This document shows, piece after piece, positions 1-16,294 of a stretch of DNA of 33,546 nt. The notes below the pieces were generated by a model. The model was given only the letters and a program-made list of their open reading frames with translations. It had not been told where the DNA came from and searched no databases. The stretch spans positions 1 through 33,546 of the forward strand of contig JAUXWY010000034.1 in the NCBI GenBank assembly GCA_030681235.1, in the 5' to 3' direction. This DNA comes from Pirellulaceae bacterium. Lineage in GTDB: Bacteria; Planctomycetota; Planctomycetia; Pirellulales; Pirellulaceae. Made by a program: the position numbers and the translations under genes. Numbering within the stretch: the first letter of the stretch is position 1; each line of letters starts with the position of its first letter.

Positions 1-862
1 CTTTGAGAATCCTGCCCGGGTTCTCAATCTCTGCCAACACCGGCACACTCGAACGATCTTCCCGTTGATTCTCTGGACTCACCGAGATCACTCGCCCCTG
101 GTAGATCCGTGCCTCTTGCTGGTGTTCATCGGTCTTGCTCACGATAAACCGAACCGCAGCCCCGCGTTCAATGCGTTCGGCATCGTTCAATGTTACCAAC
201 GCAGAAACTCTCAGCACGTCGTTCTTGACCACCCGAGCGACCGGTTCACCTGCCTGGACGTATTCACCTGGTCGTTTGTAGATTGCCGCCACGACACCTT
301 CGACCGGCGATTGGATCGACAAAATGCTCAACCAATGCTCCGCAACCAAAATCTCGTTTTGCAAGACATCCACCTCGATGGCATTGAGCAATTGGTTCTC
401 TTTGGCTTGTTGTTCTGTCCTGATGGCCCGTTGATACTCGAAATCCGCTTGATCTCGTTCCGTAACAGAAATCGCTTTTTCTGGAAGCTGGTCGTTGCGA
501 TTCTTGTTTTTTTGTGCGAATCGCAGTGCGTCCTCAGCCAATCCTAACTCGACCATACTTTCACTGCGTTTGACGGCGGCTGCGTGACGATGTTTAGCTA
601 ATGCCAATCGCAATTGCGCTTCACGCCAATCCAATTGGGCCAACACCGCATCTTTTTCCACGATGTCCCCTTCTGTCACTTGCAACGTCATCAAGAGGCC
701 TGGCGTTGAAGCCGACAATTGCAAATCTTGCGAAAACAGCGTCAGCGCCGATTCATCGACCGCCACAACCTCTGTTGGAATTTGTTGTGCTACCAATCGC
801 TCGGTCGCCGAGCCAAGCCCTATCACCAACAACAATTCGAGCCACCAACCTAGGTTCTTCAT
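1..862 (-). CDS. HlyD/RND-type periplasmic adaptor protein, 3' end outside window
   Basis: The minus strand reads open from an ATG at 862-860 to the window edge, about 287 codons. It starts with a signal peptide: MKNLGW, a hydrophobic LLLVIGLGS stretch, then a likely cleavage after LVAQ. A lipoyl-type half-motif follows (around TPGLLMTLQVTEGDIVEKDAVLAQLD), then a charged helical hairpin of about 100 residues and a second half-motif (IQSPVEGVVAAIYKRPGEYVQAGEPVARV), then the start of a beta-barrel. This order is diagnostic of membrane-fusion adaptors. Such proteins sit in the periplasm and bridge an inner-membrane machine to the outer layer. It starts 17 bases after the M50 fusion stop, so it is the third gene of that operon. 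The cargo cannot be read from the sequence. Confidence 0.85.
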   Translation of the reverse strand, partial: MKNLGWWLELLLVIGLGSATERLVAQQIPTEVVAVDESALTLFSQDLQLSASTPGLLMTLQVTEGDIVEKDAVLAQLDWREAQLRLALAKHRHAAAVKRSESMVELGLAEDALRFAQKNKNRNDQLPEKAISVTERDQADFEYQRAIRTEQQAKENQLLNAIEVDVLQNEILVAEHWLSILSIQSPVEGVVAAIYKRPGEYVQAGEPVARVVKNDVLRVSALVTLNDAERIERGAAVRFIVSKTDEHQQEARIYQGRVISVSPENQREDRSSVPVLAEIENPGRILK

Positions 863-879
863 TTTTAATCGCTTTCTAT

Positions 880-3108
880 CTACCGAAATCTCAGCAACAC
901 GCTCACCCATCGATAACACCGCTCCGCCAACGATTGTGGCTCGACATGCACTTTTGCTTCGCCACGAAATCCAGGCAACAGCTTGAGATCCTCCGCCTTC
1001 AACAACACCGACACTTGATACCAACGAAAAATCGGCTGCAACGCTCCGGTTGTCGAGTCCGGTTTCACCTCGACCGGACCACCGTTGGTACTCGCCAATG
1101 TTGGAGCCAGAGACCGCAAATGTCCCGGAGCCAATGCCACCACTTCACCACGAATTCGCAGCCCCGGATATTCGTCCAAACGCAAGGTGACAGCCTGCCC
1201 AACCGCCACATCTTGGATTTCCGTTTGCTCAACAATCAATTCCGCCAACATTTTGTCGGCATCCCCAATCCAACAAACTTGTGTTTCCGGATCCAAGGTA
1301 GCCCCCAAGTTGACTGGGTCAAACGGATCGCCCCACCATGTCGGCAACATCTCGGCGGACTCTTTCGCATCGTTGGGCAACGGACGGGGTTGGGGAAAGG
1401 CCGGAATCACTTGACCATCCCGTGGAGCCATCAACTTTAGCGACTCCAATTTCGCCGACTGCTCGCTGAGTTGACTTTCGACCCCTTTCAGCTCAGCCAA
1501 TAGCTGCGTCAAGCGACTGCTATCGGGAGCTCGCCCCCGAGTCTGCCGCTCTTCGTTTTGCAACGATTCCAGCAACTGTTGTAGCTCGCCTTCAAGCGCC
1601 GCCACGGCCAATTTCAACTCCAGATTATCGACCACCAATACTTCGTCGCCCTGCCGAACCGACTGATGCAAGACGACTGGCTGATGCACAATCCGCGCCG
1701 GAGTTTTTACAAACATGCGGACCGCATCTTGAGGTTCAATAACAAACGGGGCCCGCACCGTGCGCGGGAGGGGAACCGCGAAAAAGCCCCCCAACAACAA
1801 CACCACGATCGCCGTGCTGATCAAAAACCGATTTCGCTTCACTTGTCGCCTCCGTCCCGGATGTTCAAAGAACCGATACAACTGCCACGCCGGCATGGCG
1901 ATCATGCCGCCCAGCGACATCACCATCAACGTCTGCCCCACGACCTCCAACCCGTACGGCTCGAACCACTTCGACAGAAACCACAATATCGAAAATACCA
2001 CGAACCAACGATAAACAAAACTCGCCACACTAAAGACCGCAAACAACTCGCGTTGTTTGGTCGGCACCAATCGCGACTTGCTGGCTGGCATCCCCAACAT
2101 CACTCGACGACAGAGGTCCAACAACGCCGCTCGCGATTTCTGAGTCAGATTAGGAATCTCCAACCAATCGCTCAGCATGTAATACGCATCGTAACGCAAC
2201 AACGGATTGCCATTAAATATTAACGCACTGACACCTGACAAAAACATGATGTTCAAACACGCAAAATGCAACCAACCCGGTTGAGTCATCCACCATATCC
2301 AAGTGGCAGCCGATGCCAAAGTCAACTCGACGTACATGCCCGCACCGCCAATCGCGATCCGCTGCCATTTGTTCTTTAAAATCCAAGAATCGCTGGTGTT
2401 GCAGTAAAGCGTCGGCATGAACACCAACAGCATCACGCCAATTTCATGGCATTGTCCCCCAAAATGTTTGCACGTGTAGCCATGTCCCAACTCGTGCAAG
2501 ACCTTTGTCAACACCATCAACCCCGCCAACAACATCAAGTTGGAACCACCAAAGAATGATTGAAAGTCCGGCAATCTTCGATAGAAACCCGGCAAGTCAC
2601 TCAAGAGCAACAAGCCAGCCGAGAGCATCAATCCGACAAACAGAACCGTCATCACACCCGAGTACAACCAACGTACGCTAGGGTAAGTCGCCGTCAAAAA
2701 CCTGTCCGGATCCACGCCCGGAAATCGAATCGACAATAGACTGGCCGCCATCTGCATCACCTTCTGCCGTTGTTGCTTGTGCTTTCGCTCCAACAACGTC
2801 CGCCCCAAACCGATCGCTGGCGATACTAACAAACCCTGTTGCTGAAACGAAAGAATCAACTGCTGTAAATCGTTGAGCCGAAACTCGGCCGCAGGAAACC
2901 GCCTCTGTAATTGTTCTTTGATCTCCCGCAAATTATGTCGTCCATCCAACATCTCCAACACAGCAAACTCGGGCTCCTGCAACCGATAGTACTTCAGCGC
3001 CAACGGATCTTTCAGCACCCAACACCGCTCGGCTTGGTACAGACTCGCTTCGACTTCCAAATCCGCGCGGCGGACCATTTCGATCGGTCGTAGTTCGGTT
3101 GGTCGCAT
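880..3108 (-). CDS. PqqD-like / M50 site-2-protease-type / HlyD adaptor fusion protein
   Basis: A 742-residue, three-part membrane protein. Residues 1-100 resemble a PqqD-type winged domain, which in known systems binds peptides. Residues 145-440 hold several membrane helices and an M50 zinc-metalloprotease core: HELGH at 205-209, and NPLLRYDAYY at 301-310 in the place of the second metal motif. After a last helix near 430-447, residues 450-740 form a biotinyl-lipoyl/HlyD-type periplasmic part with a coiled coil (about 500-560). Family knowledge: such fusions are annotated as putative peptide zinc metalloproteases and occur with secretion adaptors. Inference: it processes or hands over an exported peptide or protein. 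It lies 6 bases after the upstream GAF-adaptor gene and 17 before the next adaptor, so co-transcription is likely. Both zinc motifs look intact. The substrate is unknown. Confidence 0.85.
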   Translation of the reverse strand: MRPTELRPIEMVRRADLEVEASLYQAERCWVLKDPLALKYYRLQEPEFAVLEMLDGRHNLREIKEQLQRRFPAAEFRLNDLQQLILSFQQQGLLVSPAIGLGRTLLERKHKQQRQKVMQMAASLLSIRFPGVDPDRFLTATYPSVRWLYSGVMTVLFVGLMLSAGLLLLSDLPGFYRRLPDFQSFFGGSNLMLLAGLMVLTKVLHELGHGYTCKHFGGQCHEIGVMLLVFMPTLYCNTSDSWILKNKWQRIAIGGAGMYVELTLASAATWIWWMTQPGWLHFACLNIMFLSGVSALIFNGNPLLRYDAYYMLSDWLEIPNLTQKSRAALLDLCRRVMLGMPASKSRLVPTKQRELFAVFSVASFVYRWFVVFSILWFLSKWFEPYGLEVVGQTLMVMSLGGMIAMPAWQLYRFFEHPGRRRQVKRNRFLISTAIVVLLLGGFFAVPLPRTVRAPFVIEPQDAVRMFVKTPARIVHQPVVLHQSVRQGDEVLVVDNLELKLAVAALEGELQQLLESLQNEERQTRGRAPDSSRLTQLLAELKGVESQLSEQSAKLESLKLMAPRDGQVIPAFPQPRPLPNDAKESAEMLPTWWGDPFDPVNLGATLDPETQVCWIGDADKMLAELIVEQTEIQDVAVGQAVTLRLDEYPGLRIRGEVVALAPGHLRSLAPTLASTNGGPVEVKPDSTTGALQPIFRWYQVSVLLKAEDLKLLPGFRGEAKVHVEPQSLAERCYRWVSVLLRFR

Positions 3109-3114
3109 CGCCGC

Positions 3115-5307
3115 TTACCACAAATAAAAGAATACTTGCCGTTCCACGAACTCGAACACGTCCTGCAACCACACGTATCCTAAACTGGCCTTGCCACAGA
3201 TAATCTTGGCCGAAACGTCCGTGTTGGTTTGCAACACGCGCACGTCGTCCGATTCCAGTTCGACGCGGACTTTCACATACGAGCCATCCTCGGTCGAGGC
3301 CCCCGTCACTGGAGCGATGCTCAAAACTCGACCTGTAAACCGCCGCGTCGGCTCGGCAGCCATCACGAATTCAACCGCCAACGGCTCGCTTTGCTGCCGA
3401 ACGGCATTCAACAAATGCCCGACTCGTCGATCCGGCAAGTTCAGCTCCAGTTCCCAACGTCCGTCGGTATCCGCAACTTCCATCAACAGCCGACCCATCG
3501 GAACCGGTCGTCCTTTCAACTCCTCCTGCACGTTCCAAGTCAACACTCGCCCAGAAACTTGACTACTGACGACCGACAACATCATTTGTTGCTGCAACAG
3601 AGACAATTGAGTTTGCAAATTCAATTGCCGCGATTTTAAAACCGCTGGCGGAGTCTCGTTCAATTGATCCGCAAATCCCAACGGCGATTGTGTGGGCGAA
3701 CGATCTCGACGATTTCGGACCTCCATCTGGGCTCGAACCATGGCCAGTTCGCCCTCCACTTGCCGGACTCGAACGTCCAAGTCGTAGTTTTTCATTCGCA
3801 GCAACGGTTGCCCAACGCCCACGGAGTCGTTAGGCCCCACCAAGACCGACTCGATGATCCCGTCCATGGGGGCAAAGACGCGCTGGCGAACTTGTGGGAC
3901 TAGTGTTCCTTCACTCGATACATAAAAAGTCGCGGGAAACAAAGCCAAGGCCAACAGCGAAACGGTAACCAAGCCCACAATCGCCGCCGCTGGCAATCGT
4001 CGAGCCAACGCCATCGCCTTGGTCTGGCCCAAAAAATGCCACAAGGGATAGAACAGCAACTGTCGATGCTGATGAGACAATCGCAAAGCACTGCCACCCA
4101 CTTCTTGAGCCACCGTCAACGTTCGCCCTTGCTCGGCAAGTTGTTTCTCCAACGTCAGCGTCTCGAAAACCAGCACCGCAATCACCGAGTTGGATGTTCG
4201 GCGTTTCTTCTTCAGGTCGACTTGTTCCACGTCCAGAGCAGGATCGCGCTCGAGTACCGGTAGTAGAGTCATCCACCGACTGCGACTCTCCAACAAATAC
4301 GCCTCCAACGGAATATCGATTTGTTTGGGCAACGGTTCAGTCGACGGATACTCCAAGCCACTGCCCGATTTCACGGCCACTCCAGCCAATCGCTCCAATA
4401 GCTGCACCCATTTCGAACGGCGATTGACCGCCGTCTGGCCACTGATCGCCTTGACCACAAAACGGCCACGTCGCCACCACAGGACAGTGACCCGCTCGCA
4501 ACCGATCAACCGCCGGCACTCGTTGGCCACCGCATAAGAAGTCTCCTGTGGGTCCAAAGATCCATGAACCTGCCGCACAAACTCCCGGTATGCGTCAACA
4601 GTGTCGCCGACCGCATTATCGTGAACCACTCTGTCGCGGACCGCTCTGTCGGTCCGATTGTCGCCGATCGCGCTGTCGGTCCGATTGTCGCCGACCTCAT
4701 GTCCTCCATCCCCACTCGGCATTCCCCCGATCCCAAACCCCACCCCATTCCAAACCCAATCGCTTGGCCGATGAGATTCCTTTGCACGCATCTCTTCATT
4801 TGCACGACCACCAACTCGCGCCGCCCACCCGAGACCCGCCAACTCATTCGCCGCCAACTTCAACACTTCGGTTCCGCCCAACTCGGGCACCCCATCGACA
4901 AACTGAAGTTCCAGAACAATTCGCTCAACAGTTTTAGCGAACCCAATACAACTCATTACCAAACTGGCGGCCCCATCAGCTCTTCGCTGTGTCACCAACG
5001 GAACACTGCCCGGTTCCCTGCTCGCTGCCAAGCAACACTCGACCCGTTGGGCCCAAAACAACTGTGAGTTGACCACTCCAGTTTCCGCGATAATTTGGGG
5101 TTCCGCCGACTCGTTAGGTTCCGTCTCCGACATGCTCCAAATACTTGCGTACGACAATTCCGGTACGGTGACCAGTCTCGCCAACAGAGGTTTCCAATAA
5201 CTGGTCCCTGCGCCATCCAGGTTATCCCCGAGGTGCCCATCTATCGAATTCGACAAGTCCGCCCGTTCCATACAAATTCCAACAACAAGATACGACATCA
5301 GCGTCAA
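3115..5307 (-). CDS. GAF-domain/HlyD adaptor fusion, single-pass membrane protein
   Basis: A 730-residue protein and first gene of the minus-strand operon. Residues 1-235 have no family I recognise and include a low-complexity stretch (about 205-225) made by a 27-bp DNA repeat. Residues 240-390 look like a GAF domain (conserved RLIGCERVTVLWWRRG, late core VIAVLVFETL). A membrane helix lies at about 442-463. A lipoyl half-motif (VFAPMDGIIESVLVGPNDSVGVGQPLLRM), a coiled coil (about 510-575), the second half-motif and a beta-barrel end the protein. It therefore joins a cytoplasmic sensor-like domain to a periplasmic adaptor. I chose the TTG at 5307 because a perfect AGGAGG lies six bases upstream (5319-5314); the ATG at 5298 would be 15 bases away. 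The ligand of the GAF-like part is unknown. Confidence 0.8.
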   Translation of the reverse strand: MTLMSYLVVGICMERADLSNSIDGHLGDNLDGAGTSYWKPLLARLVTVPELSYASIWSMSETEPNESAEPQIIAETGVVNSQLFWAQRVECCLAASREPGSVPLVTQRRADGAASLVMSCIGFAKTVERIVLELQFVDGVPELGGTEVLKLAANELAGLGWAARVGGRANEEMRAKESHRPSDWVWNGVGFGIGGMPSGDGGHEVGDNRTDSAIGDNRTDRAVRDRVVHDNAVGDTVDAYREFVRQVHGSLDPQETSYAVANECRRLIGCERVTVLWWRRGRFVVKAISGQTAVNRRSKWVQLLERLAGVAVKSGSGLEYPSTEPLPKQIDIPLEAYLLESRSRWMTLLPVLERDPALDVEQVDLKKKRRTSNSVIAVLVFETLTLEKQLAEQGRTLTVAQEVGGSALRLSHQHRQLLFYPLWHFLGQTKAMALARRLPAAAIVGLVTVSLLALALFPATFYVSSEGTLVPQVRQRVFAPMDGIIESVLVGPNDSVGVGQPLLRMKNYDLDVRVRQVEGELAMVRAQMEVRNRRDRSPTQSPLGFADQLNETPPAVLKSRQLNLQTQLSLLQQQMMLSVVSSQVSGRVLTWNVQEELKGRPVPMGRLLMEVADTDGRWELELNLPDRRVGHLLNAVRQQSEPLAVEFVMAAEPTRRFTGRVLSIAPVTGASTEDGSYVKVRVELESDDVRVLQTNTDVSAKIICGKASLGYVWLQDVFEFVERQVFFYLW
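4642..4695. repeat. 27-bp in-frame tandem repeat (two units)
   Basis: Units 4642-4668 and 4669-4695 differ at two of 27 bases. The period is a multiple of three, so the frame of the GAF-adaptor gene is kept; on the coding strand each unit gives a GDNRTD-containing nonapeptide. Degenerate partial copies (CTCTGTCGCGGACCG and similar) lie just before at 4629-4645. It sits in the linker before the GAF-like domain. Confidence 0.85.
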
Positions 5308-13392: not shown

Positions 13393-13410
13393 GTGGAGAA
13401 AAAAAGGAAA

Positions 13411-13783
13411 AAAAGGTGTCAAGTACCGTTTTATTGGTTTAGGACAGCTTCTTTGGGCGACCCTGTGGGCGGATCGTTGATTCAAGACCGCAACGCTCGA
13501 TGGTGGATGCGATCCATGACTCGCTTCCAAAAGGCTTCAACGATAATCCGTTCGAAGGCTTCGTAATCCGCATCTTTGAAGAAAAAGGGTTGTTTCGCGT
13601 TGCCGCGATTGAGTGCATGATAAATTCCACCCGCCTCATCAGCCCGAGGTGCGCGTTCCACAATGTCCTCCAATCGTGATTGCGAACGCTCCGATTACAC
13701 CACAATGAAGCCAGCAAATCAATCAAGAACCTGCCCCTTTGACCAAAACACTACCTAAACAAAAACGGTACCTGACACCTTTT
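13411..13783 (-). mobile_element. Non-autonomous RAYT-derived element, copy A
   Basis: The ends are near-perfect inverted repeats: GGTGTCAAGTACCGTTTT on the left and AAAACGGTACCTGACACC on the right. On the minus strand the inside encodes the first 40 or so residues of a REP-associated tyrosine transposase (ADEAGGIYHALNRG, then DYEAFERIIVEA) joined straight to its C-terminal segment. The join at 13535/13536 corresponds to loss of 446 bp relative to the intact copy at 26015-26816, removing both the HUH motif and the catalytic tyrosine. The right end is followed by an exact 18-bp tandem duplication. It lies between the helicase-nuclease and SEC-C genes. Confidence 0.8.
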
Positions 13784-13807
13784 ATTTTCCTGACACCTTT
13801 TATTTTC
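13772..13807. repeat. 18-bp tandem duplication at right end of element A
   Basis: CTGACACCTTTTATTTTC occurs at 13772-13789 and again, identical, at 13790-13807. The unit joins the last bases of the element to flanking DNA. A similar 19-bp duplication follows the intact element at 26805-26842. Confidence 0.85.
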
Positions 13808-13816
13808 TGCAAACCC

Positions 13817-13984
13817 ATGAGTAAACGACGACGCGGTTTCCCATCGGAAACCAATGTCAAACGTGGCATACGCATCGTCCACGGAGAGAAATTGCTCGAG
13901 GAAAAGCTTGGGCGAAACGACCCGTGTCCTTGTGGCAGTGGCAAACGATTCAAACGCTGCTGCCTCCAATCGGGCTGCTTTTGA
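13817..13984 (+). CDS. Small SEC-C zinc-motif protein
   Basis: ATG 13817 to TGA 13984, 55 residues: a basic start ([17 protein letters not shown]) and a C-terminal SEC-C motif, [18 protein letters not shown], with CxCx8CC spacing. In SecA and other proteins this motif binds zinc; as a small stand-alone protein its role is unknown. The motif is intact. The coding start is a few bases after the duplicated right end of element A, so the upstream promoter region may have been replaced. The short-SecA gene in this window lacks a SEC-C tail, but nothing here shows a link. Confidence 0.7.
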
Positions 13985-14021
13985 TGGTGCCAACCGCGAC
14001 GAGTACTTTTAGAGAGAAAGA

Positions 14022-14186
14022 ATGAATCTTCGCACGGAATTTCGTTGGAACTGCCGGTCGGGAGTCCATGACGGTCCTAAGGTAGCGATCGCTGGGCGAC
14101 CAGCTAGTGAATGGCGGGAAGATCTCAGCCAGATCCTTTCTGCCTGTCAACGGTCTGCGTATGACGCAGAAGACGGACGGCCGTAA
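14022..14186 (+). CDS. Possible small protein of 54 residues, unrecognised
   Basis: ATG 14022 to TAA 14186, preceded by AGAGAGAAAG as a weak ribosome site. The product is polar, with a middle part GVHDGPKVAIAGRPASEWRE and an acidic end. I do not recognise a family. The same DNA contains an 18-base phrase, ACGGTCCTAAGGTAGCGA (14076-14093), identical to a conserved part of bacterial 23S rRNA, and several short hairpins (for example GCTGG-GCGA-CCAGC). It could therefore be a structured RNA and not a gene. It lies between the SEC-C gene and the putative Y RNA. Confidence 0.3.
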   Translation: MNLRTEFRWNCRSGVHDGPKVAIAGRPASEWREDLSQILSACQRSAYDAEDGRP

Positions 14187-14232
14187 CGCCAAAAGCAACT
14201 CTCGACCAAGCCTCGTGCCAACAACATTCTAT

Positions 14233-14382
14233 TTGAACCAAGCGACCAACTGACGATTCGGAGTACATGAAATTCGAAGGTTGTGGGTTCGATTCCCACC
14301 GCAGACTCGCATGAGTTTGTGTAGCTCAATTGGATAGAGCGTCGAAATACCTCTGATCACAACTTCGTTGGTCGCTTCTTTC
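14233..14382 (+). ncRNA. Putative Y RNA with a circularly permuted tRNA-like domain
   Basis: Order in DNA: anticodon-stem 3' strand TTCGA (14273-14277), variable loop AGGTT, T arm GTGGG-TTCGATT-CCCAC (14283-14299), acceptor 3' strand CGCAGAC (14300-14306), loop TCGCATGA, acceptor 5' strand GTTTGTG (14315-14321), TA at tRNA positions 8-9, D arm GCTC-AATTGGATA-GAGC (14324-14340), G26, anticodon-stem 5' strand TCGAA (14342-14346). All stems pair, with G-U pairs only in the acceptor. In place of an anticodon loop both strands run outward into a long bulged helix: CGGAG/CTCTG, GAT/ATC, then an 11-bp perfect stem AAGCGACCAAC (14240-14250) with GTTGGTCGCTT (14367-14377). Known biology: bacterial Y RNAs are encoded beside Ro60 and carry tRNA-like domains. 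The TROVE gene follows at 14642. The ends of the transcript are estimated. Confidence 0.8.
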
Positions 14383-14641
14383 GTTACGCCAAAGACATCG
14401 ATCACAACGCGTTCCGACAGGGCTAAAGTAATCGCATCGTGAACCTTTGTCACACAACGAAGTCTTTATTTTGAATCAATCATCCAAAGGGAACAAGGGG
14501 AAGCGGTGTGAGCGAGTGCTAACTCTGCTTTGCGATTCTTGTTCGACTGCCAGTTGGGATTACATCGTCTGCTAAACGATGGCGAAAGCCATACTCTCAA
14601 CCACCCTTCGTCGAACAGTTATTATTTTGGAGTCTATAGAG

Positions 14642-16294
14642 ATGGCAAACAAATCGTTATTCGCAAGCTTACTGGGCCGATTGCCGAAGGCGAACGCCGT
14701 TAACGAAGCGGGTGGCCGAGCGTTCCAGCTCGAGCCGAAGCACGCATTGGCTCAGCTCGCGTCGACCGGCACGTTCGGCAACGCATTCTACAGCACGGCT
14801 GAGACGCAATTCGACGAGGTCCTGAAGTTGATCGACGAAGTTGACGACAACCAATACCTGGCGAAGCAGGCATTGTACGCACGTGAGAAGGCGTTCATGA
14901 AGGACATGCCGGCGGCATTGTTGGTCGCGCTGTCGGTTCGTGATACCGAACTGATGCACCGAGTCTTTGATCGCGTGGTCGATAACGGTCGCGTTCTGCG
15001 CACGGTGTTCCAAATGATTCGTTCGGGTCAGTTCCAGAACAAGGCAGGCAAGGGCCGCGTGGGCTTGTCAAGCTCAGTGCAGCGAGCGTTCCAACGCTGG
15101 TTGAACACCGCCTCGGTTGGAAAACTGTTGAGCGCGTCGATCGGTAACGATCCAAGCTTACGGGACATCCTGCGTATGGCTCGACCGACGCCAAAGGATA
15201 ACGCTCGCCGAGCGTTGTTCGGTTGGTTGACTGATAAGGAGGTCGAGAAGTGGGCGCCGGCAACGGAAGCCGATTTGCCGGCTGAAGTTCAGTCGCTGAA
15301 TGCGTACCGCAATTCGGAGAGCGACGAAGCCCAAGCCTTGATCGCCGGTGAATTGGACAACGTCCGTTGGGACTTGCTGTCCGATGCTGCCAAAGGACCA
15401 AAAGTTTGGGCGGCACTGGCGCGCAAGATGGGGCCACAGGCTCTGCGTATGAACCTAAACACTTTACTGCGACACGGAGTGTTCAATGTAATCAGCGACA
15501 ATGGCGATAATCTAAGCGCCGACGTCGCTGACCGGATCGCGGACGAGTCGAAGATTCGCCGATCGAAGCAGTTCCCGTACCAGTACTTTGCTGCCTACTT
15601 GAACGCTGAAGACGACGTTCCGCAGAAGATCAAGACGGCACTGCATAAAGCCGCCGAGATCGCCTGCGGAAACGTAGCAGAGCTGCCGGGACCGGTCGTG
15701 ATTGGTCTGGATACGTCTGGATCGATGAGTTGTGCGGTCATGGGTAACCGTGGCCGAGGAGCAACTTCGAAGATGCGCTGCATCGACGTGGCTGCACTGT
15801 TCGCGGCGGCAATTCTGCGACGCAACCCGGACAGCGTTGTGATTCCGTTCGATACGTTGGCTTACGATGCCAAGATCGATCCGAACGATTCGATCCTAAG
15901 CATTGCTGAGCGGTTGGCAACGTACGGTGGTGGTGGAACGAATTGTTCGCTGCCGTTGGTAGCTGCCAACCAAAATTATGCGAATCGCAAGTTCGCTGGC
16001 ATTGTTCTTGTTAGCGATAACGAGAGCTGGGTCGGAACAGGACGGAACGGTTCAACCGGTGTGATGACGGCTTGGGAGGTGTTTGTTGCCAACCAGCGCA
16101 AGCTGGCAGGTAAGGACGCCAATCCGAAGCTGATCAACATCGATCTTCAGCCGTACCAGACGGTTCAGGCTTGCGAGCGAGCGGATATCATGAACATTGG
16201 TGGCTTCAGTGACGCCGTATTCAACGTCATCAGTGCATTCCTCGCCGACAACAACCAGCGATTCGTCGCCGAGGTTGAAGCGATCGAACTGTAG
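14642..16294 (+). CDS. rsr: Ro60-family TROVE-domain RNA-binding protein
   Basis: 550 residues from ATG 14642, chosen over the upstream start at 14579 because GGAG lies about ten bases before it and [15 protein letters not shown] fits the family start. The N-terminal two thirds match the TROVE HEAT-like ring ([35 protein letters not shown]). The C-terminal third is a von Willebrand A domain with an intact MIDAS motif ([11 protein letters not shown]) and [11 protein letters not shown]. Ro60 proteins bind Y RNAs and misfolded RNAs; in Deinococcus the Y RNA tethers Ro60 to an exoribonuclease. Here a tRNA-like Y RNA lies 260 bases upstream on the same strand, which supports the assignment. A hairpin terminator follows. 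Confidence 0.92.

What the first reader, a model, noticed from the sequence alone, without database searches (positions are those of the whole stretch)
14233..14382. Complete circularly permuted tRNA fold inside a putative Y RNA beside Ro60
Every tRNA element can be traced (U8-A9, D loop with GG, G26, five-base anticodon stem, five-base variable loop, T loop TTCGATT, seven-pair acceptor), but the 3' half comes before the 5' half and the acceptor ends are joined by an 8-base loop. The anticodon loop is replaced by a long bulged helix with an 11-bp closing stem. Known bacterial Y RNAs carry tRNA-like domains next to Ro60. This one appears unusually faithful to a real tRNA, so it may be a substrate for tRNA-modifying or processing enzymes. 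It is easily missed by tRNA finders because of the permutation.
Basis: partly seen in the sequence, partly recalled or inferred. Interest (0 to 1): 0.75.

Follow-up and report, generated by a model that had tools for sequence, protein, structure and literature searches.

The report
Ro60 RNAs mimicking tRNA and rRNA
Beside a bacterial Ro60 gene lies a row of three small RNAs that share one stem; the flagged one copies a tRNA with its halves swapped, which is a known kind, and its neighbour appears to do the same with a piece of 23S ribosomal RNA, for which I found no description.

Summary
The flagged element is real: 14240-14377 is a circularly permuted tRNA on a Ro60-type stem, 0.26 kb upstream of a Ro60 gene (rsr, 14642-16294). 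It matches Rfam YrlA below the curated cut-off (43.3 bits, E 3.4e-8), and ARAGORN calls it a tRNA only when its halves are put back in order. That kind of RNA is known, and it is not unusually faithful: 59 of 93 such planctomycete RNAs pass the same test.

Three tandem Y-like RNAs share one frame. The first (14039-14228) carries a circularly permuted copy of the 23S rRNA domain IV junction (helices 67-68-69-71), opened at the helix-69 loop and closed beyond helix 67, as the tRNA module is opened at the anticodon loop and closed at the acceptor. It covaries strongly (30 of 46 pairs with double changes in 22 sequences), occurs in at least two planctomycete orders, and lies within 2.6 kb of rsr, same strand, at 36 of 49 places. 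No Rfam match and no paper (7 searches) covers it. Best reading: Ro60 RNAs with exchangeable mimic modules, one aimed at 23S rRNA factors. Expression, Ro60 binding and partner are untested.

The parts
14240..14377 (+). Y2: the flagged RNA, circularly permuted tRNA mimic (YrlA type); closing stem 14240-14250/14367-14377, second stem 14255-14263/14351-14358, tRNA-like module 14270-14346
   Evidence: sequence; YrlA 43.3 bits; ARAGORN when un-permuted, 0 of 93 shuffles; covariation of tRNA-type relatives
14039..14228 (+). Y1: 23S rRNA domain IV mimic on the same frame; closing stem 14044-14048/14218-14222, second stem 14056-14064/14199-14207
   Evidence: covariance model R1, 165.6 bits (built partly from this sequence); covariation over 22 sequences; fold z -2.97, 0 of 200 shuffles
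14071..14076 (+). Y1, helix 69 3' strand (ACGGTC), comes first
   Evidence: pairs with 14179-14184; compensatory changes at three of six pairs
14077..14088 (+). Y1, helix 69-71 linker CTAAGGTAGCGA, letter for letter as in 23S
   Evidence: 21-base exact match 14068-14088 to 23S of relatives; 30 of 30 23S loci found by a profile of this half, E 2.8e-7 to 3.6e-6
14091..14104 (+). Y1, shortened helix 71 (GCTGG-GCGA-CCAGC)
   Evidence: 98.2% of cells paired, 2 of 5 pairs with double changes
14113..14118 (+). Y1, helix 67 3' strand (GGCG..)
   Evidence: pairs with 14139-14144; 3 of 6 pairs with double changes
14120..14138 (+). Y1, new hairpin that closes the domain where the rest of 23S would be
14139..14144 (+). 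Y1, helix 67 5' strand
14146..14178 (+). Y1, helix 68 analogue: base GTC/GAC plus shortened hairpin
   Evidence: spacers to helix 67 (1 base) and helix 69 (0 bases) equal to 23S in 22 of 22 mimics and the six distinct 23S segments measured
14179..14184 (+). Y1, helix 69 5' strand (GGCCGT), comes last
   Evidence: un-permuted model scores 23S better than native order in 26 of 26 23S loci
14535..14623 (+). Y3: short third RNA with the same frame, in the rsr leader, 18 bases before the rsr start; stem 14540-14547/14610-14617
   Evidence: R1 43.4 bits; frame motif; fold
14642..16294 (+). rsr, Ro60/TROVE protein, 550 aa
   Evidence: Pfam vWA_Ro60 50.2 bits and TROVE 36 bits, both over cut-off; PDB 2nvo 'Ro sixty-related protein, RSR' E 4.6e-19
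13817..13984 (+). small SEC-C protein (55 aa) just upstream of the array
   Evidence: Pfam SEC-C 39.6 bits; also at other array loci

Best explanation
The stretch 14039-14623 encodes three Ro60-type Y RNAs in tandem upstream of rsr. Each has the same frame: closing stem, ACUGC(C/A), second stem ending GGA(G/U)U(A/C)CAU, effector, second stem 3' strand, (C)UUCGU, closing stem. By analogy with Deinococcus and Salmonella Y RNAs the frame holds Rsr (inferred). The effectors differ: a circularly permuted tRNA (the flagged element, YrlA type) and a circularly permuted 23S rRNA domain IV junction (H67-H68-H69-H71), plus a short one in the rsr leader. Both mimics follow one building rule: open the host RNA at a hairpin loop (anticodon loop, H69 loop), graft that stem on the Ro60 frame, and close the far end. 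Most likely mechanism: the particle tethers Rsr to whatever normally grips tRNA or the 23S domain IV core, so that Ro60-assisted RNA processing or decay (with PNPase, as in print for Deinococcus) is steered to tRNA-like and 23S-like substrates or borrows their maturation factors. Shown: sequences, covariation, permutation by model comparison, gene neighbourhood. Inferred: transcription, Rsr binding, partner, role.
For: Frame: exact motif three times in the window, all on + at this locus, none on -, 0.0 per shuffled strand; a model of the 23S mimic also finds Y2 (35.1 bits) and Y3 (43.4 bits). tRNA module. 23S module: profile of its 5' half finds all 30 23S loci tested and nothing comparable; RNAalifold, given no structure, pairs the H69 strands across the module, 25 of 41 pairs with double changes; given structure 90.9% of cells paired, covariation 0.445 against 0.179 (sd 0.011) shuffled and at most 0.110 when slid. 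Permutation: same letters as a model in native order score 18.2-21.2 bits on 26 23S loci, un-permuted 20.8-33.3 bits, higher in 26 of 26. Junction spacers H67-H68 (1) and H68-H69 (0) equal in mimic and 23S. Neighbourhood: rsr within 2.6 kb, same strand, at 36 of 49 places; of 117 relatives, 15 of 17 with the mimic have rsr against 25 of 100 without, Fisher 1e-6. Host tracking: the H69 C/G swap of host 23S is mirrored in the mimic in 19 of 21 genomes. Rsr with Y RNA and PNPase degrades 23S in Deinococcus (PMC6181284, passages).
Against: No expression or binding data. The 3' half alone finds no 23S match with a sequence profile. Rotating whole effectors against a 23S profile gains only 2.6 bits on average, over 5 bits in 1 of 22. 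The 26 23S loci are closely related and partly near-identical, so 26 of 26 is not 26 independent tests, and the native-order model had 24 pairs against 26. Host tracking is one swap on the tree, with 2 of 21 discordant. The window RNA folded alone does not form the H69 stem. 13 of 49 places show no rsr within 2.6 kb of the position used (some at locus or contig ends, one with the position misread), and G051 and G060 have the mimic but no rsr. No terminator-like site, and one promoter-like site on the wrong strand.
Confidence: 0.7

Rival explanations
1. The 23S-like module is a decoy or sensor: it titrates free 23S-binding factors (or is itself modified) and needs no Ro60-guided decay. The tRNA modules would do the same for tRNA enzymes.
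For: YrlA is a substrate of DusA and TruB (PMC8394870, passages); a competitive-inhibitor role for the YrlA tRNA-like domain was proposed by others (PMC7790460, passages). Fits the strict conservation of CUAAGGUAGCGA.
Against: Association with rsr and the shared frame say that the Ro60 part matters.
Confidence: 0.25
2. The 23S-like stretch is a decayed 23S fragment that happened to land beside rsr.
For: Some copies are broken: own paralogue 57.3 bits, L114 53.1 bits, L106 28.3 bits.
Against: Consistent covariation over 22 sequences, a shortened H71 of its own, the Y frame around it, two orders.
Confidence: 0.03
3. The module is a ribosomal-protein-type leader: rRNA mimicry that regulates the adjacent rsr or SEC-C gene in cis.
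For: rRNA mimicry is known for r-protein leaders (PMC7247131, passages); the RNA lies upstream of rsr at most places seen.
Against: It has a closed Y frame, lies 0.4 kb upstream of rsr with two other RNAs between, and lies downstream of rsr in G011 and G012.
Confidence: 0.08
4. Y1 is a plain structured RNA and the permuted reading of its 3' half is over-interpretation; only the H69 3' strand to H71 part is 23S-like.
For: The 3' half has no significant sequence match by itself, and the GGCCGU strand could be dictated by pairing.
Against: Un-permuted model beats native order at 26 of 26 23S loci; identical junction spacers; H69 pairing with double changes.
Confidence: 0.15

Closest known systems
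YrlA bacterial Y RNA (Rfam RF02553; Salmonella YrlA, PDB 6CU1 named in PMC8394870)
   Same: Ro60-type stem plus tRNA-like D, T and acceptor arms; beside rsr. Y2 matches it at 43.3 bits.
   Different: Under the Rfam gathering score of 69; here it is one of three tandem RNAs with different effectors. Y1 carries rRNA instead of tRNA.
Deinococcus Y RNA / RYPER (Rsr, Y RNA, PNPase; PMC6181284 passages)
   Same: Rsr homologue; a Y RNA whose effector reaches a partner; role in rRNA decay and 23S maturation.
   Different: Its effector is said to resemble a tRNA T arm; no 23S-like module is mentioned in the passages seen.
rRNA mimicry by ribosomal protein leaders (L20, S15, S4; PMC7247131 passages)
   Same: An RNA outside the ribosome copies a piece of rRNA.
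   Different: Short protein-binding sites in mRNA leaders of r-protein genes; not permuted, not on a Ro60 frame.
23S rRNA domain IV, helices 67-71 (Rfam RF02541)
   Same: H69 stem, CUAAGGUAGCGA, H71, GAAnGGCG, H68 base and junction spacers.
   Different: Strand order permuted, H69 loop replaced by the Y frame, H68 and H71 shortened, no rest of 23S.

Membership tests
YrlA (bacterial Y RNA), for Y2 | match to the Rfam covariance model at the gathering score | tested here: not met
   43.3 bits against 69; E 3.4e-8 in 801 bases. Of 117 relatives only 2 have a match over the cut-off
YrlA (bacterial Y RNA), for Y2 | T, acceptor and D arms in permuted order | tested here: met
YrlA (bacterial Y RNA), for Y2 | gene beside a Ro60/Rsr gene | tested here: met
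Y RNA in general, for Y1, Y2, Y3 | closing stem from 5' and 3' ends with conserved internal motifs | tested here: met
Y RNA in general, for Y1, Y2, Y3 | bound by Ro60/Rsr | not testable with these tools
   needs pull-down or binding assay
Y RNA in general, for Y1, Y2, Y3 | transcribed as a small RNA | not testable with these tools
   no transcript data; promoter and terminator scan uninformative
23S rRNA mimic, for Y1 | sequence match to domain IV | tested here: met
   5' half: 30 of 30 23S loci; 3' half alone: no match
23S rRNA mimic, for Y1 | same helices and junction in permuted order | tested here: met
23S rRNA mimic, for Y1 | recognised by a protein that binds 23S domain IV | not testable with these tools
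   no binding data
tRNA gene, for Y2 | called as tRNA in native order | tested here: not met
   ARAGORN 0 genes; Rfam tRNA 15.1 bits, T arm only

The most novel reading that the evidence does not exclude
Planctomycete Ro60 particles use a set of circularly permuted mimics built by one rule, of several tRNAs and of the 23S rRNA domain IV junction, as exchangeable targeting modules. The 23S module is a new kind of RNA mimicry: a permuted rRNA domain that competes for or recruits the factors that act on 23S helices 67-71, and so steers Ro60 to large-subunit maturation or decay.
Probability: 0.4. Interest if true: 0.92.

Novelty: new variant of a known kind. Interest (0 to 1): 0.8.

Why it matters
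Why Ro60 and its RNAs act on 23S rRNA in bacteria (maturation and starvation decay, known from Deinococcus) is open. A Ro60 RNA that carries a piece of 23S gives a direct, testable handle: whatever binds the module is a candidate link between Ro60 and the large subunit. It also shows that circular permutation is a general way to graft a mimic on a carrier stem, not a peculiarity of tRNA-like Y RNAs. Such RNAs are missed by tRNA finders, and this one has no Rfam match.

Tried and rejected
Intrinsic terminators and promoters: none useful. Rotation of whole effectors against a 23S profile: weak, not used as main evidence (shuffles gave no reported hit). Sequence profile of the 3' half against 23S: no match. 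Host tracking of the H69 swap as proof of co-evolution: rejected as proof, one event on the tree. First script for the rotation test failed on an option and was rerun. A search for anticodon hairpins in T-arm RNAs: 7 of 100 against a shuffled mean of 1.2 and maximum of 6 in 200, only suggestive. In one search the frame test was too lax to use (49 of 49) and is not cited; in the same call the L199 position was misread (the model places that copy at 4242-4433), and it counts among the 13 without rsr. Chance matches of the collection scan: 9 of 31 stretches have no frame and no mimic. Dropped before the 22-sequence alignment: 8 of 30 copies (L148 and L163 for insertions, L155 for lack of the frame motif, L161 cut by the locus end, L171, L173, L115 as near copies, L112 as divergent).

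Full report
What is at the finding. Rfam finds YrlA there at 43.3 bits, E 3.4e-8, under the gathering score of 69; the gathering-level scan of the whole window lists nothing and ARAGORN finds no tRNA. The RNA lies 0.26 kb upstream of a Ro60 protein gene, Pfam vWA_Ro60 50.2 bits and TROVE 36 bits, closest by sequence among solved structures to 'Ro sixty-related protein, RSR' 2nvo (that this is the Deinococcus protein is recalled). A 24-base stretch of its D-arm side is identical to a tRNA of the same genome (tRNA at L007; by my reading of its loop, anticodon ACG, arginine).

Is it unusual? I collected frame-bearing RNAs from the fetched loci: 136 distinct effectors, 93 with a T arm, 13 23S-like, 30 other (loose regular expressions). 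Native order: ARAGORN of 93. Un-permuted, with an invented anticodon loop and 63 trims each: 59 of 93, including the window's. Shuffled and treated alike: 0 of 93. RNAalifold on 23 tRNA-type RNAs pairs both Y stems and the T, acceptor and D arms, 21 of 31 pairs with double changes. So the flagged element is a real member of a known kind and typical of its relatives. The isotypes printed by ARAGORN mean nothing, since the loop was invented.

A search of the own genome with 13985-14580 showed that 14025-14122 is 95% identical at a second rsr locus, and it reads as 23S rRNA. In 117 relatives it has 17 strong matches; 16 further genomes match only by 21 bases (39.2 bits), which I take to be their 23S genes. 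Looking at the contexts showed a strict frame around it, shared with the tRNA-type RNAs. In the window the frame motif occurs exactly three times, at 14050, 14249 and 14546, all on +. Arrays of relatives hold up to nine frame motifs on one strand of a fetched locus.

The 23S mimic. A pattern scan of 84,980 species genomes gave 31 stretches: 21 with frame and mimic, one with the mimic and no strict frame, nine chance matches. Titles of the 21 name planctomycetes except one that says only 'bacterium'. I aligned 22 copies (8 of 30 dropped, see Tried and rejected). RNAalifold without guidance gives 41 pairs, 25 with double changes, including the H69 strands joined across the module. My structure: 46 pairs, 90.9% of cells paired, 30 pairs with double changes, covariation 0.445 against 0.179 (sd 0.011) in shuffles, 0 of 500 as high, and at most 0.110 when slid. 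The weak spots are pair 78-115 (12 of 22 unpaired) and the outer H69 pair 33-165 (8 unpaired, 2 gaps).

Match to 23S. The Rfam structure of domain IV was read from a relative's 23S. In order, the mimic has H69 3' strand, CUAAGGUAGCGA, a short H71, GUGAAnGGCG with the H67 3' strand, a new hairpin, the H67 5' strand, a short H68, and the H69 5' strand. Profile of the 5' half: all 30 23S loci, E 2.8e-7 to 3.6e-6, next best E 6. Profile of the 3' half: no match there. As a model of sequence and structure, the same letters in native order score 18.2-21.2 bits on 26 23S loci and un-permuted 20.8-33.3 bits, higher in every one; the margins are from 0.7 to 14 bits and many loci are near-identical. Spacers H67-H68 (1) and H68-H69 (0) are the same in 22 of 22 mimics and in the six distinct 23S segments measured; H69-H71 is 13-14 against 20 and H71-H67 8 against 10. 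One divergent copy (L216) carries CGTAACTATGACGGTCCTAAGGTAGCGAA, the whole H69 loop of 23S, in normal order, which supports the 23S origin and shows another layout.

Host tracking. Host 23S H69 has a C/G swap in some genomes; the mimic has the host's letter in 19 of 21 (TBK1r and G129 differ). On a 23S tree the swap happened once, so this is suggestive only. The window's own 23S was not found in its assembly by the pattern used.

Distribution and neighbourhood. Model R1 in 296 genomes of the order: 21 with E up to 1e-3, of which 17 over 110 bits; the other four are weak (34 to 43 bits) and likely share the frame only. In 392 genomes of the phylum: 10 at E up to 1e-6, six of them in a family of another order of the class. 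Both samples are parts of larger groups and used strict filters. rsr was found within 2.6 kb on the same strand at 36 of 49 places examined (one is an rsr fragment); the other 13 include places at the ends of loci or contigs and orphan arrays. Of 117 relatives, rsr is in 15 of 17 with a strong mimic match and in 25 of 100 others, Fisher 1e-6, not corrected for kinship.

How it most likely works. [quoted passage not shown] Passages of PMC8394870 say that YrlA has tRNA-like arms and is modified by DusA and TruB. The titles of two works in those reference lists speak of 23S maturation and starvation-induced rRNA degradation by Rsr. I propose that the planctomycete particle has exchangeable modules and that Y1 is the one for 23S. 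Identity of the parts I hold at about 0.85, the tethering role at about 0.4; the overall confidence given is 0.7. The partner could be PNPase or a 23S factor; the H69 loop itself is absent from Y1, so enzymes that act on that loop are less likely.

Novelty. Searches of the paper library found no Y RNA with an rRNA module and no planctomycete Y RNA study in their listings; the library lacks the main Y RNA papers, so prior description cannot be excluded. Rfam shows no family over Y1. I rate the flagged element itself a new member of a known kind, and the locus as a whole a new variant of a known kind.

Noticed in passing
L006 (G000:C300) 217-2954, minus strand: Second rsr locus in the same genome: rsr 93% identical, SEC-C gene, a degenerate 23S mimic (57.3 bits) and a degenerate tRNA-type RNA; a long palindrome sits between SEC-C gene and mimic (2650-2741).
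   Followed up: partly
13817-13984; L006, L092, L093, L097, L099, L111, L115, L118: A 55-aa SEC-C protein is conserved beside the arrays: found in 9 of 51 searched sequences.
   Followed up: no
14535-14623; L088 2109, L089 3685, L102 2989, L107 3710: A short frame-bearing RNA lies just before the rsr start in several loci; it may let Rsr bind its own leader and regulate itself.
   Followed up: no
L090 2324, L093 2100, L097 3355, L173 2376, L200 2205, L201 2391, L202 2354: Seven tRNA-type RNAs keep what looks like a whole anticodon hairpin (loops such as CTTCTAA, CTGTTAA, CTTTTAA); 7 of 100 against a shuffled mean of 1.2, maximum 6.
   Followed up: partly
L216 1501-1694: A divergent 23S mimic with the whole H69 loop in normal order.
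   Followed up: partly
L123, L124, L125, L126, L127, L129: A distant rsr type (about 40% identical, 42-44%) showed no intact 23S mimic core in these loci; four of the loci overlap YrlA matches of 53 bits or more.
   Followed up: no
13400-13800: Inverted AAGGTGTCA...ACGGTACCTGACACCTT repeats flank a non-coding stretch upstream of the SEC-C gene, as in mobile-element remnants.
   Followed up: no
G000:C184:22764-25135: A dense cluster of tRNA matches in the same genome, some low-scoring.
   Followed up: no
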